DNA of 64,000 nt. Origin: Geothrix edaphica (lineage in GTDB: Bacteria; Acidobacteriota; Holophagae; Holophagales; Holophagaceae). The notes beneath the pieces were generated by a model that made no database searches, was not told the origin of the DNA, and was given only the letters and a program-made list of their open reading frames with translations. Positions 22,041-26,973 of this stretch are shown in pieces. The translations under genes were made by a program, and so were the position numbers. The stretch spans positions 186,001 to 250,000 of the forward strand of contig NZ_BSDC01000001.1 in NCBI RefSeq assembly GCF_030268045.1, read 5' to 3'. How positions within the stretch are numbered: position 1 is the first letter of the stretch; every line of letters starts with the position of its first letter.

Positions 22041-22112
22041 GATCCATCGAACCACAGGCGGGGGAGAGATGCGAATGCTCGTGATGGCGAAGTGAGGACT
22101 CCCGATCCCGAC

Positions 22113-25025
22113 CTAGAGTAGGGCGATAGGCTCCGGATTTTGAGGGTCGTCGTCTTCAGCGAACGGCTGGGCCTCTCCGACAGGAGATCCAATGCCATGG
22201 TCCGTGAGCCCCGGCTCTCGGGCCATCAACTTGCGCAGAGGGTTGAGATTTGGCATTCCCAGCGCCTTGGAAATGGCTTCGTCAATCTCAGCCCGGACCG
22301 GGTCCTCCTCCAGTTTGGATAGGGCCATCAGTTTCTGGGCGCCGAGTCGGTCGTACGCGCCTGCGAGCGCCATCGCTTGTGCGTCTGAAAGAACGCGAAC
22401 GTCCAGAACTGGCATACCTTCCCAGGCGGGCTGTTTCATCTTCATCCAAGCACCCTGCGTGACTACCCTCCTGCCGTAGAAGAGCAGCAGGGCAAGCGAA
22501 CCATTCAGCCATAACAACATCGCTTTTCTTCGATTGGGGTCAAAGTTCGACCGAAGGGGCCACCAAGTGTTTGCCAGAACCGATTCATCCAATCCAATAG
22601 CCAACACGCGCTGACTGTTGGTCCTAAGACGTTCTACGAGCAGGATGTCGCCAGATCGTTCCCAAAGATGGGCCCCGTAGTTTGGCCCTCGTGGGGAGTC
22701 CTGCTTCACCACGAGGAAAGTATTGGGTTCCTGACGAATGGTCGTAATGGCTTGGGAATCGTGATTCCAGACGCCGCGATAGGGAGAAAACTCCTCTGTC
22801 GAGGGGTAGAACCCATCGTGGATCCGGCGCTGATCCGGTCCGAGATCACCGAGGGCCGCGAGAGGGCACAGAGTGACCGAAATAGGGGTTGCCTGACCAG
22901 GCACCTGCACCAGCCCATTCCCCAGGTGCCAGAACGTCCTTGCAAGTTCGGTCTGGCTAAAGAGGCCTCCCGTCCAGTTTTCGCTGCCCCGCGGTGCGGG
23001 CATGGACATCAGTTCACCCAACTTACCCTGGGGAGTCCGGATGGCCTGAGTGCCGGTTCCCTCCACATTGGCAGGCGGTGTGGCAAGAACGTGGTGGGCG
23101 AGGTCCAGGGCTTCGTAGATGGAGGTGGGATTGCGCCAGAGGTTGAGGTACTGGGTCCGTCCGGGAGTCTCGTAGAGACCATCCTTCTTGCGGGTGATGA
23201 ACATGACTTCGGAGAGGTCCGTGTTCTCCGAGAAATTCGGTCGGCCTGCATCATGGCTGGTGATGACCATCTCCAGGTGGTGGCAGGTGGCGAGAAGTTC
23301 TCGGGTCGCGGCCCAGGCCTCGCCCGAGATCAGGGCGGCAGGGAGCACGAAGGCCATCCGGCCTTTCGGCTTCAAGCGCTTTTCCGCCACGGCTACGAAG
23401 ACGGATCCGAGGCCTGCGGTGATGTTTGCGCTGAGCCTTTTGGACCGCTTCTTCAGTTCCTTCTGGAGGACCTCACGTTCCGCCTGGGGAAGCGACCCGA
23501 ACAGAAGGTTGCCCCCCACGCTGCGGACGAAAGGTGGATTCATCACGCACAGATCCAGGTCTGGAAGGGTGGCTGAGGACGTAGAGACATGAGCGGCGCT
23601 GACCTGCTTGGCATCCATCCGGGCCCCATCAAGGGTCACTTCAGTGGGGATGGTGTTCCGGCCGATGAAATCCAGGCTGCCCAGCCGAATGCCTGACTGG
23701 CCGTCACCTACCCCCATGGGCATGACAAAGAGGTTCATCCGTGTGAAGGCCACCTCGGGAGCGAGGAGGGCCAATGTGGATGCCGTCAGGTGGAGGGCGG
23801 AGGGCAGGACATCATACCCATGGAGGATCCGTTCCATCAGTGCACGATGGAATCCCTGGAGATCCGGTGGATGGATGGGGAGGCCCTGCTCCGCCCTGGC
23901 TCGGATGTGCTTATCAGCCAAGGCCTGGGCTGCGGCCATGAGGAGGGTGCCCGTTCCACAGGTCAAGTCGGCGATGCGCAGATCCTCCAGCACCCGGAGA
24001 TCTGCGTAGTCCCGATCATCCCCTGGGATGTCGGTAGCGAGCTTGAGGAGGAGGGTGGCCGCGGACACAGAGGTGTAGTAGGTCCCCAGAAACTTGGCCT
24101 GGTGCAACAGCCAGTGGTAGATCCGGCCCATGAGGTCGTGCCTCAGGGCGGTCTGCTTTTCGCAGATGCTGGCAGCCTCTTTCAGCAGGGCCTTGAATGC
24201 GACCGACGCATTCCGGGAGTTGGGGACCTCGCGGAGGATTCGTTCGCCAAGCTGGAAAATGGGGACGTAGTTGATGTTTTCCCAGATCCATTGCCAATGG
24301 TCGGCCACATCCTGGATGGGTGTCTTGCTCCGCTGGACCTGCCCGAGCGTCTTGATGCCGGTTCTCGATCCCGCCAGCTGCTCCTCGAAGATCAGGGCAT
24401 TGGAAAGAGCCAAAGCCGCCACCTTGGCGGCTGTCACTCGGCGCCGTTCCCTGTCCTCGGGTTTCTCGTCTTCAGGGGGATGGATGCCGAGGAGGTCGGA
24501 AAGCCGATCACAGACATCGGGTTGCCCGCTCCAGAGCGCAGCAACGCCATCCAGCCGCGCACCGAGAGAGGTGGCCGTCTGTTCCACCAAGTCGTCCTGG
24601 GACAAGGTCTCCTGGGCGCGCCGAAGCGCGGCCATCAACTCTTCCGGGCTCCCCTTGGCCCAGGTCGGCGAGGTGGTTTCCGTGACGATGCAGAATTCGA
24701 GGGAGGCGTCCTGGAGGCGTTTTGCCAGCTGCTGAGTCGGGGCCGTCCGGAGATCGGCCGGGTAGACCGCCGCAGCGGCGATGTGGGCGATGCCATGGCG
24801 CACACGCCCCTTGGCGTCCTGGAACACCAGATCCTTGGCGCCGGGGGTATCCGCGAACTTCCCCTCGATGGCGATGCGCAATCCCCGGAGCGTGAACAGG
24901 ACGTCCGGACGATCTTTCCCCTTGGCCAGGATGACCTCGGCCTCGGCCTGTACGCCGAGTTGGGAGATGGCCTGAGCCAGATAGGTGTTCACCGTTTCTT
25001 CGCGGTGGCGCATGGGGGTGGTCAT
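22113..25025 (-). CDS. Single-chain restriction/N6-adenine methylase-like protein
   Basis: The 970-residue protein combines a nuclease-like start and a DNA methylase. Asp41, Glu54 and Lys56 (RPDV ... IAIEGKF) match the PD-(D/E)xK nuclease pattern. Methylase motif I is DLTCGTGTLL (about 354-363) and motif IV is NPPF (about 496-499), of the gamma type used by type I and IIG enzymes. The last 250 residues could be a target-recognition region. This organisation suggests a type IIG-like restriction-modification enzyme or a phage-defence methylase. Codon and base composition are visibly less GC-rich than the neighbours, a sign of transfer. No specificity subunit is nearby. The XRE gene is divergent with a palindrome between. 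Confidence 0.83.
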   Translation of the reverse strand: MTTPMRHREETVNTYLAQAISQLGVQAEAEVILAKGKDRPDVLFTLRGLRIAIEGKFADTPGAKDLVFQDAKGRVRHGIAHIAAAAVYPADLRTAPTQQLAKRLQDASLEFCIVTETTSPTWAKGSPEELMAALRRAQETLSQDDLVEQTATSLGARLDGVAALWSGQPDVCDRLSDLLGIHPPEDEKPEDRERRRVTAAKVAALALSNALIFEEQLAGSRTGIKTLGQVQRSKTPIQDVADHWQWIWENINYVPIFQLGERILREVPNSRNASVAFKALLKEAASICEKQTALRHDLMGRIYHWLLHQAKFLGTYYTSVSAATLLLKLATDIPGDDRDYADLRVLEDLRIADLTCGTGTLLMAAAQALADKHIRARAEQGLPIHPPDLQGFHRALMERILHGYDVLPSALHLTASTLALLAPEVAFTRMNLFVMPMGVGDGQSGIRLGSLDFIGRNTIPTEVTLDGARMDAKQVSAAHVSTSSATLPDLDLCVMNPPFVRSVGGNLLFGSLPQAEREVLQKELKKRSKRLSANITAGLGSVFVAVAEKRLKPKGRMAFVLPAALISGEAWAATRELLATCHHLEMVITSHDAGRPNFSENTDLSEVMFITRKKDGLYETPGRTQYLNLWRNPTSIYEALDLAHHVLATPPANVEGTGTQAIRTPQGKLGELMSMPAPRGSENWTGGLFSQTELARTFWHLGNGLVQVPGQATPISVTLCPLAALGDLGPDQRRIHDGFYPSTEEFSPYRGVWNHDSQAITTIRQEPNTFLVVKQDSPRGPNYGAHLWERSGDILLVERLRTNSQRVLAIGLDESVLANTWWPLRSNFDPNRRKAMLLWLNGSLALLLFYGRRVVTQGAWMKMKQPAWEGMPVLDVRVLSDAQAMALAGAYDRLGAQKLMALSKLEEDPVRAEIDEAISKALGMPNLNPLRKLMAREPGLTDHGIGSPVGEAQPFAEDDDPQNPEPIALL

Positions 25026-25038
25026 GCCCTGGCTCCGG

Positions 25039-25068
25039 TTGAATTAAAATACGAATAAATCGTATATT
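25039..25068. promoter_or_regulatory. Palindrome inside a candidate promoter between methylase and XRE genes
   Basis: ATACGA (25049-25054) and TCGTAT (25060-25065) are inverted around 5 bp, in the only strongly AT-rich stretch of the area. On the plus strand TTGAAT (25039-25044) and TATATT (25063-25068) bracket it as -35 and -10 with an 18-bp spacer. The XRE protein downstream is the natural candidate to bind here and control both genes. Confidence 0.55.
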
Positions 25069-25134
25069 TGATTCACCCTACCACGCCCAATCCCAACGCT
25101 GGATGAGGAAGGGTTTTCACCCTAAAGTCGTGGC

Positions 25135-25692
25135 ATGGCGCCCCGCCAGCCTTCTCGCCCTGGAACCAAGGGCAGCAAGGCCGGTCGTTCGAAATCAAGA
25201 ATTAACCGTCAATTGGCCAAACGGGGGAAATATAAACCCCGATCAGGGCCTGCGGACCCCAAGACACCCGGAGAACGGATCCGGGCGGCACGCCGGGCCT
25301 TGGGGCTCACACAGCGGGAACTTGGCGAGAAGCTCCGGACGGATCAGACCACTGTCAGCGCCTGGGAGTTGAACAAGCCCGCCAAGCTGGCGGGCCCATC
25401 ACTGGTGGCGCTGGCCAAACTCCTTCAGACAAGTCCGGAAGCGATCCTCACTGGGAAAGGGTGGGCGCTTCCCTCAGCAGAACCCGGCGGTGAAGGCAGC
25501 GACAGGGTGGCAGAGTCTTACGCCGATGATCTGGTCCACCTGCCGCCGTCTCGGGCGAGTGAGGGGCAGGCCATCTGGATTCCGCGCGAAGCGCCTGGTG
25601 ATTTCGAGGAGATGAAGGCAACCCTCATCCTGGCGAAGCTCAAGAAAGCCCTTGCCGAAAAACGGCCAGTTTGGGTGATCGTCGGGCAGTAA
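25135..25692 (+). CDS. XRE-family regulator with basic N-terminal tail
   Basis: The 185-residue protein has a helix-turn-helix domain of the XRE/Cro type at about residues 45-100 (GERIRAARRALGLTQRELG, then TTVSAWE). An unusual Lys/Arg/Gly-rich tail of about 40 residues precedes it. The C-terminal 80 residues are acidic and of unknown function. It is divergent from the methylase-like gene, as controller proteins of restriction systems commonly are, and a palindrome lies between them. I infer that it regulates that gene. The start is the first ATG; a later start would remove the basic tail. Confidence 0.8.
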   Translation: MAPRQPSRPGTKGSKAGRSKSRINRQLAKRGKYKPRSGPADPKTPGERIRAARRALGLTQRELGEKLRTDQTTVSAWELNKPAKLAGPSLVALAKLLQTSPEAILTGKGWALPSAEPGGEGSDRVAESYADDLVHLPPSRASEGQAIWIPREAPGDFEEMKATLILAKLKKALAEKRPVWVIVGQ

Positions 25693-25825
25693 GAGCACGA
25701 TTGGAAATCGTGTAACCACTGGTCAGGGCTGCTTCTTCTGTCTAGTGACCCCTTGCCACGGACCTTGAAGACCCTATCTTCCGAGCGCAGGGCCCTGGCT
25801 TGGCCAAGCAGAAGCCGGAGGTGCC

Positions 25826-26806: not shown

Positions 26807-26881
26807 TGGTAGTCCCAAGGGGAATCGAACCCCTGTTCCCGCCGTGAGAGGGCGGTGTACTAACCGCTATACGATGGGACC
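26807..26881 (-). tRNA. tRNA-Glu (CTC)
   Basis: The 75-nt cloverleaf, including the encoded CCA, has acceptor GGTCCCA pairing with TGGGACT (one G-U pair). The anticodon loop CTCTCAC gives CTC, and the T arm is AGGGGTTCGATTCCCCT. It lies 17 bp after tRNA-Gln in the same unit. Confidence 0.96.
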
Positions 26882-26898
26882 ATCAAACAAGTTGTGAG

Positions 26899-26973
26899 TG
26901 GTTGGGGAGGAAGGATTTGAACCCTCACCTGACGGTACCAGAAACCGTTGTCCTACCATTAGACCACTCCCCA
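26899..26973 (-). tRNA. tRNA-Gln (CTG)
   Basis: The 75-nt cloverleaf has acceptor TGGGGAG pairing with CTCCCCA, discriminator A and an encoded CCA. The anticodon loop TTCTGGT gives CTG. It is the first gene of a two-tRNA transcript with tRNA-Glu. Confidence 0.95.

What the first reader, a model, noticed from the sequence alone, without database searches (positions are those of the whole stretch)
22113..25692. Low-GC restriction/methylase-like gene with divergent XRE regulator
Seen: D41, E54 and K56 in a nuclease-like start, gamma-type methylase motifs, about 970 residues, a divergent XRE gene, AT-rich intergenic DNA with an ATACGA-N5-TCGTAT palindrome inside a promoter, and GC below the surroundings. 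Inference: a recently acquired type IIG-like system with a controller protein. No specificity subunit or other defence genes are visible, so it may be a simplified or new arrangement.
Basis: partly seen in the sequence, partly recalled or inferred. Interest (0 to 1): 0.55.

Follow-up and report, generated by a model that had tools for sequence, protein, structure and literature searches.

The report
Restriction enzyme under a lineage-specific controller
A probably mobile one-gene DNA-cutting and DNA-marking defence enzyme sits beside a switch protein from a family that this bacterial lineage places next to many different restriction systems, often behind a tiny conserved leader peptide.

Summary
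Window 22113-25025(-) encodes 970 aa; 25135-25692(+) is a divergent XRE gene. D41/E54/K56, CGTGT and NPPF are invariant in 11 of 11 relatives. The enzyme is most likely a single-chain Type IIG restriction-methylase with in-chain target recognition, so no specificity subunit is missing. Relatives are solitary genes on plasmids, viral contigs and unrelated chromosomes; none of 13 checked has this XRE. The gene is absent from 46 congeners; six have the empty site.

The XRE has a separate history. It belongs to a 58-member family confined, in the class search, to one bacterial family, standing divergent to Type III Mod, Mrr-type, PDDEXK or kinase genes. In 12 of 12 other restriction-linked members a 28-37-codon leader ORF overlaps the XRE start, against 0 of 9 kinase-linked and 6% background. 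In the window and its sister L090 the leader is fused in frame. The palindrome recurs at another member's promoter and at only three places in 47 genomes. Cutting, repression and leader function are inferred.

The parts
22113..25025 (-). 970-aa single-chain restriction-methylase-like gene
   Evidence: translation; Pfam N6_Mtase 6.6e-7; 50-58% identity to 10 relatives over nearly the full length
24576..25025 (-). N-terminal nuclease-like domain, residues 1-150; D41 codon 24903-24905, E54 to K56 codons 24858-24866
   Evidence: triad invariant in 11 of 11; AF2 model of residues 1-303 pLDDT 80.9; many PD-(D/E)XK-type chains among the VIA rows, Z 4.4-6.8, under 8
23121..24155 (-). gamma-class N6-adenine methyltransferase domain, residues 291-635 (CGTGT 356-360, NPPF 496-499)
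   Evidence: best fold match of the whole model BpuSI 3s1s, Z 12.2, rmsd 14.9, 479 aligned
22536..23120 (-). probable target-recognition region, residues 636-830: least conserved of the main regions
   Evidence: mean pairwise identity 0.45 against 0.66 methylase, 0.58 C-terminal, 0.55 nuclease, 0.54 helical; HsdS 1ydx matches residues 713-924, Z 7.7
25049..25065 (.). operator-like palindrome ATACGA-ATAAA-TCGTAT
   Evidence: same half-sites upstream of the XRE of L045; spacer plus right half kept in sister L090
25039..25068 (+). sigma70-like promoter match for the XRE, palindrome inside it
   Evidence: consensus match only
25135..25212 (+). leader segment fused in frame to the XRE (residues 1-26, MAPRQPSRPG...)
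   Evidence: resembles the separate overlapping leader ORFs of the family; same fused form in L090
25156..25174 (+). leader RNA hairpin position (5 of 6 pairs kept in the window)
   Evidence: covariation in 21 leaders: 87.3% of cells paired, covariation score reached by 1 of 500 shuffles
25213..25692 (+). XRE-type HTH with conserved C-terminal tail (LKKALAEKRPVWVIVG)
   Evidence: HTH_3 3.4e-10; family alignment; 58 members
22075..25750 (.). whole inserted segment; six congeners have 49-78 bp here instead

Best explanation
The 970-aa protein is a Type IIG-like restriction-modification enzyme: an N-terminal PD-(D/E)XK nuclease, a gamma-class N6-adenine methyltransferase and a C-terminal target-recognition region in one chain. 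The recognition region reads a site, the methylase marks it in host DNA, and the nuclease cuts unmarked incoming DNA. The enzyme gene travels alone. In this lineage it has been joined to a local XRE controller, which probably dimerises on the palindrome between the two genes and represses its own promoter and the enzyme's. That would hold the enzyme at a low level, where it methylates before it pairs up to cut. Shown: gene structure, conserved motifs, scattered distribution of the enzyme gene, absence from congeners, independent histories of the two genes, the family-wide leader and the recurring operator-like repeat. Inferred: cutting, methylation, repression and the timing role.
For: Triad and methylase motifs are invariant in 11 of 11. 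Pfam N6_Mtase scores over its cut-off. The best VIA fold match is the Type IIG enzyme BpuSI, Z 12.2, rmsd 14.9, 479 aligned. PD-(D/E)XK-type folds appear among the N-terminal matches. Residues 636-830 are less conserved than the other main regions. Full-length relatives lie on two plasmids, two viral contigs and unrelated chromosomes. There are 0 hits in 46 congeners, and empty sites in the six compared. The controller family sits divergent to Mod, Mrr-type, PDDEXK_4 and kinase genes. The operator-like repeat recurs, and subgroups with alike recognition helices have alike palindromes. The review PMC12707154 (section 14) proposes that single-chain enzymes are methylase-only at low concentration.
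Against: No activity, methylation or phage data. The full-length model is weak (pLDDT 61.5). N-terminal fold matches stay under Z 8, and flavoprotein-like folds rank among them. Foldseek alone gave no N-terminal match at E 0.001. The window palindrome alone is not beyond chance. No promoter-like match was found for the enzyme itself. A third copy of the palindrome in the same genome lies inside a small ORF away from any XRE.
Confidence: 0.72

Rival explanations
1. The enzyme is a methylase with a degenerate or non-cutting N-terminal domain, acting as an epigenetic regulator or as an anti-restriction marker carried by plasmids and phages.
For: It is carried by plasmids and viral contigs, where protective methylation would help the carrier; N-terminal fold matches are under Z 8.
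Against: D41, E54 and K56, with R39 and P40, are invariant in 11 of 11 sequences that are only 50-58% identical to the window protein, so the site looks maintained.
Confidence: 0.17
2. The XRE controls only itself or some other gene, and its position beside the enzyme is accidental.
For: No XRE of this family near any of 13 relatives of the enzyme; only one clear palindrome, inside the XRE promoter match.
Against: The palindrome ends 23 bp before the enzyme's start codon; the family is repeatedly divergent to restriction or kinase genes; in Mod loci operator-like repeats lie near both promoters; enzyme and XRE lie in one insert.
Confidence: 0.2
3. The XRE is an activator-repressor like classical C proteins rather than a simple repressor.
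For: Autogenous HTH controllers of restriction systems commonly activate at low and repress at high level (PMC12707154, passages).
Against: [quoted passage not shown] here the two genes diverge, and the palindrome lacks the GACT C-box core.
Confidence: 0.25
4. The protein is a lone member of a multi-gene system (BREX PglX, DISARM DrmMI or MADS MAD2).
For: mad2, DrmMI and BrxX appear as weak sequence or fold matches.
Against: The MAD2 model matches only part of the protein, 22.8 bits against a cut-off of 720; the segment holds two genes, and relatives stand among differing neighbours.
Confidence: 0.03

Closest known systems
Type IIG restriction-modification enzymes (RM.BpuSI, Eco57I, MmeI group)
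   Same: One chain of about 1000 aa: N-terminal PD-(D/E)XK-like part, gamma methylase with NPPF, C-terminal recognition part; BpuSI is the top VIA fold match
   Different: No significant sequence match to any solved chain, no MmeI Pfam hits although those models do find L051, no accompanying second methylase in the segment, no known site
C (controller) proteins of restriction systems
   Same: HTH regulator with operator-like repeats, placed at a restriction gene
   Different: 185 aa with a conserved tail, divergent rather than co-transcribed with the nuclease, other operator sequences, preceded by or fused to a leader
HsdC-type controllers of Mollicutes (PMC5282649; abstract and one section read)
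   Same: A lineage-wide HTH family attached to different restriction types with several operator motifs
   Different: Mostly within operons or fused to methylases; the section read describes no overlapping leader ORF and no kinase-linked members
pvuIIC/pvuIIR gene overlap (PMC2997769; abstract read)
   Same: Overlap of reading frames and hairpins in a controller operon
   Different: There the overlap is between C and R and was found not to couple translation; here a short leader overlaps the controller's own start

Membership tests
Type IIG restriction-modification enzyme | gamma-class N6-adenine methyltransferase motifs (I before IV, NPPF) | tested here: met
   CGTGT 356-360 and NPPF 496-499 invariant in 11 of 11; Pfam N6_Mtase over cut-off
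Type IIG restriction-modification enzyme | N-terminal PD-(D/E)XK nuclease residues | tested here: met
   RPD41...E54-G-K56 invariant in 11 of 11
Type IIG restriction-modification enzyme | N-terminal PD-(D/E)XK fold | tested here: inconclusive
   model pLDDT 80.9; PD-(D/E)XK-type chains Z 4.4-6.8, tied with unrelated folds
Type IIG restriction-modification enzyme | target-recognition part in the same chain | tested here: inconclusive
   HsdS 1ydx match at 713-924, Z 7.7; BpuSI match 148-944, Z 12.2; low conservation 636-830
Type IIG restriction-modification enzyme | cuts at a fixed distance and methylates the same site | not testable with these tools
   needs purified enzyme or a methylome
MmeI subfamily | MmeI_N, MmeI_hel, MmeI_Mtase, MmeI_TRD Pfam domains | tested here: not met
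   none at E 1; the same models hit L051
BREX PglX / DISARM DrmMI / MADS MAD2 | partner genes of the system adjacent | tested here: not met
   two-gene insert between flanks that are adjacent in congeners; partial low-scoring hits only
Classical C protein | C gene ahead of and co-transcribed with the nuclease gene | tested here: not met
   divergent genes
Classical C protein | C-box operator with GACT core | tested here: not met
   operator-like repeat is ATACGA-N5-TCGTAT; C-box definition from PMC5282649
Classical C protein | controls its own and the restriction gene's transcription | not testable with these tools
   needs reporter or footprint assays

The most novel reading that the evidence does not exclude
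One bacterial family keeps its own all-purpose controller for incoming restriction genes. An XRE repressor, with a translated leader peptide and RNA hairpin at its start, is placed divergent to Type III, Mrr-type, PDDEXK and Type IIG genes, and the leader times or limits controller synthesis so that a new restriction system can be tolerated. The window shows a rarer form with leader and controller fused, newly joined to a wandering Type IIG gene.
Probability: 0.35. Interest if true: 0.72.

Novelty: new variant of a known kind. Interest (0 to 1): 0.52.

Why it matters
How a cell survives the arrival of a restriction enzyme is an old question, answered mainly for Type II systems with C proteins. 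Here one controller family appears to serve several restriction types in one lineage, with subgroup-specific operator-like repeats and a conserved leader that separates restriction-linked from kinase-linked members. Each step can be tested with reporters. The enzyme is also a full-length, widely scattered Type IIG-like group for which I found no solved or named relative in the collections searched.

Tried and rejected
Searches that gave little: phmmer and profile search of solved structures, no significant match. NCBIfam: no model over its cut-off for the enzyme. The third palindrome copy, G000:C2:652389, lies inside a 130-aa ORF in a low-GC stretch without an XRE, so I do not count it as an operator. 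XRE on plasmids: three partial, HTH-region matches.

Rejected: a dedicated, co-evolving controller of this enzyme (0 of 13). Rejected: a missing specificity subunit as a novelty. Corrected: I first thought the XRE starts at TTG 25213, because homologues align from there; sister L090 keeps the N-terminal extension, so ATG 25135 is the likelier start.

Limits: the first start-codon rule missed the overlap at L049, so a wider rule (start within 45 nt of the model start) was used for every locus. That wider rule raises the chance rate slightly; the empirical rate in kinase-linked and other-genus members together is 2 of 35. Partner classes were assigned only where Pfam, PADLOC or clear likeness spoke. 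L048's partner is cut by the contig end and was classed by its HARE-HTH domain and likeness to L038; L119's Mod gene is cut by the contig end and was classed by likeness to L088 and L112, L112 by likeness to L088, L052 by likeness to L053, L034 by likeness to L039; kinase partners of L040, L050 and L086 were classed by likeness to Pfam-tested ones. Likeness was judged by eye on the listed N-termini. Partners of the 26 other-genus members were not classified one by one, and part of that listing was cut from view. Members share descent, so 12 of 12 is not 12 independent events (tree). L122 (44% identical viral relative) was left out of alignments because its match does not translate in one frame. 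Phage-like neighbours of L013, L014 and L017 were judged by eye only. Target-site duplication at the insert ends was not tested.
Full report
What is there. ORF 22113-25025(-) encodes 970 aa and ORF 25135-25692(+) 185 aa; they diverge from 109 bp of intergenic DNA. GC is 0.59-0.63 here against mostly 0.65-0.75 around. The large protein hits Pfam N6_Mtase at 6.6e-7, over its cut-off, with weaker Eco57I and CoiA_nuc signals. PADLOC gives mad2, Type I, Type II and Type IIG methylase models at low score. The small protein is an HTH_3/XRE protein.

The enzyme. Seven full-length relatives came from a collection of 84,980 species genomes, 50-57% identical over nearly the whole length. Two came from viral contigs (L018 appears to be the same sequence as L014) and two from plasmids, Aminobacter pUSP4 and Sulfuricystis pSTJ1. 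A later scan gave one more viral relative at 44%, and a sample of 396 genomes of the phylum gave two more full-length ones, G378 and G275. In the 11-sequence alignment D41, E54, K56, CGTGT and NPPF are invariant. Mean pairwise identity is 0.55 for residues 1-150, 0.54 for 151-290, 0.66 for 291-635, 0.45 for 636-830 and 0.58 for 831-945, the pattern expected of a recognition region. AlphaFold2 of the whole chain is weak (pLDDT 61.5). Still, the best VIA match is the Type IIG enzyme BpuSI 3s1s, Z 12.2, rmsd 14.9, 479 aligned; CamA, M.BseCI and M.TaqI follow, MmeI is at 7.4, and an HsdS subunit matches residues 713-924 at 7.7. The N-terminal 303 residues fold better (pLDDT 80.9). Their VIA rows include TT1808, Holliday-junction resolvases, RecU, SPARDA, NhoI and DrdV at Z 4.4-6.8, but unrelated folds score alike, and Foldseek alone gave no match at E 0.001, so the fold test is inconclusive; which of these chains are PD-(D/E)XK nucleases I partly recall. 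A review describes Type IIG enzymes as gamma methylases with an N-terminal DNA-cleavage domain, mostly PD-(D/E)XK, the monomeric ones with R, M and S parts joined in about 1000 aa (PMC3874165, passages). That fits, and makes the absent S subunit ordinary.

Mobility. The gene was not found in 46 other genomes of the genus. Its flanking genes (VanZ/phosphoesterase-like and cytidylate-kinase-like) are adjacent with 49-78 bp of unaligned DNA between the matching ends in six congeners I compared (G024, G041, G017, G006, G025, G008). Window homology stops near 22074 and resumes near 25751, so the insert of about 3.68 kb holds just these two genes. A seventh congener, G007, has a different gene, a 996-aa VIT-domain protein, in the same site. 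Relatives of the enzyme have different neighbours from locus to locus.

The controller. None of 13 loci with a relative of the enzyme holds an XRE of this family nearby; L010 has one weak HTH hit about 2 kb away. By contrast 22 of 47 genomes of the genus have a match to the XRE. A profile of 21 members finds 58 full-length members (E at or below 1.9e-20, counted from the listing) in 93 genomes of the class, all of them in the window's own family; in a sample of 297 genomes of the phylum, 15 genomes of that family and one of another family have such a match. The tail LxxAxxEGRPVWxVVG is conserved along with the HTH. I fetched all 58. Where the divergent neighbour could be classed it is a Type III Mod (7), an Mrr-type restriction gene (4, one cut and classed by its HARE-HTH domain), a PDDEXK_4+RAMA protein (1), this Type IIG gene (1) or a large Ser/Thr kinase (9; in L042 a gene that looks PIN-type by eye lies between). 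In addition HsdM genes converge on three members (L034, L037, L038), and L051 has an MmeI-type gene two genes away. Ten others have unknown or unrelated neighbours, and 26 members in other genera were not classed.

Leader. In 12 of 12 restriction-linked members other than the window, an ATG-started ORF of 28-37 codons ends in a TGA that overlaps the XRE start (ATGA or GTGA). The figures are 9 of 10 for members with unclassed neighbours, 0 of 9 for kinase-linked, 2 of 26 for the rest, and 440 of 6948 (6.3%) for all ATGA/GTGA sites in the same DNA. Seventeen of 22 leaders, the window included, fit M[AVP]x4-6R[SP], against 12 of 419 background ORFs; that pattern was chosen after seeing the leaders. 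A hairpin within the leader is supported by covariation in 21 leaders (L051 left out): 87.3% of cells paired, covariation score reached by 1 of 500 shuffles, lower for every slid version. In the window the leader runs in frame into the XRE. Its nearest relative L090 (support 0.99), from another genus of the family, has the same fused form and keeps 13 of 13 bases, GAATAAATCGTAT, of the operator region. There the divergent gene is a small zinc-ribbon, membrane-like protein and a phage-type integrase lies next door. So the controller module changes cargo.

Operators. The window palindrome alone is within chance (101 of 300 shuffles). Yet ATACGA-N5-TCGTAT is found at only three places in 47 genomes, one being the promoter region of another member, L045, whose recognition helix is nearly the same (DQTAVSAWE against DQTTVSAWE). 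Other helix subgroups have their own repeats: CAACACAA...TTGTGTTG in L047, L049, L052 and L053, near both promoters; CAAAATCAA-N5-TTGATTTTG in L037 and L038; ATATCGG-N3-CCGATAT in L035 and L036. In all, 7 of 13 restriction-linked regions have a palindrome reached by 11 or fewer of 300 shuffles, against 0 of 9 kinase-linked, 1 of 10 unclassed and 3 of 26 others. The window is among the 6 of 13 that do not.

How it probably works. The XRE is likely an autorepressor that also limits the enzyme: its palindrome lies inside its own promoter match and ends 23 bp before the enzyme's start codon. A review argues that single-chain enzymes may methylate as monomers and cut only when they assemble, so a low level is methylase-only (PMC12707154, section 14). 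A repressor would keep an arriving enzyme in that range. This is inference.

Known and new. Lineage-wide controllers serving several restriction types are known from Mollicutes (PMC5282649, abstract and one section), and gene overlap and hairpins in a controller operon have been tested and found not to matter for PvuII (PMC2997769, abstract). My paper searches for a leader peptide or upstream frame at a restriction controller (listings and abstract starts) listed nothing that I recognised as the same; the search for Geothrix with restriction-modification found no paper. I judge the enzyme a new subgroup of a known kind, and the controller with its leader a new variant of a known kind.

Noticed in passing
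L026 1601-4588 (G007:C3, same intergenic site as the window insert): A congener carries a 996-aa VIT/DUF2135 gene in the very site where the window has enzyme plus XRE: a possible insertion hotspot.
   Followed up: partly
L040, L041, L042, L045, L050, L085, L086, L087, L115: Nine members of the XRE family are linked to very large Ser/Thr kinases, several with TPR repeats and kinase domains resembling PADLOC PD-T4-6 models; all nine lack the leader.
   Followed up: partly
L054 5990-6006 (G000:C2:652389-652405): Third genus-wide copy of the palindrome, inside a 130-aa ORF in a low-GC stretch of the window's own genome.
   Followed up: partly
L117, L118, L119, L120: A separate subgroup with leaders starting MPR, MSR or MRL and ACAACT-N-AGTTGT-type repeats in three of the four; partners of L117, L118 and L120 unknown.
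   Followed up: partly
L103 and L111: Members in another genus with palindromes AATTCCGTT-N5-AACGGAATT and AATTCCGCT-N5-AGCGGAATT, each reached by 1 of 300 shuffles.
   Followed up: no
L051 8477-11851: An MmeI-type Type IIG gene two genes away from an XRE of this family.
   Followed up: partly
window 26807-26973: tRNA-Glu and tRNA-Gln genes about 1.1 kb from the insert; no integrase among the two genes of the insert.
   Followed up: no
G000:C1:387330 and G000:C3:538018: Two further N6_Mtase matches in the window's own genome.
   Followed up: no
G192 (another family of the phylum, 4% contamination): Only genome outside the window's family with strong matches to the XRE family in the phylum sample: transfer or contamination.
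   Followed up: no
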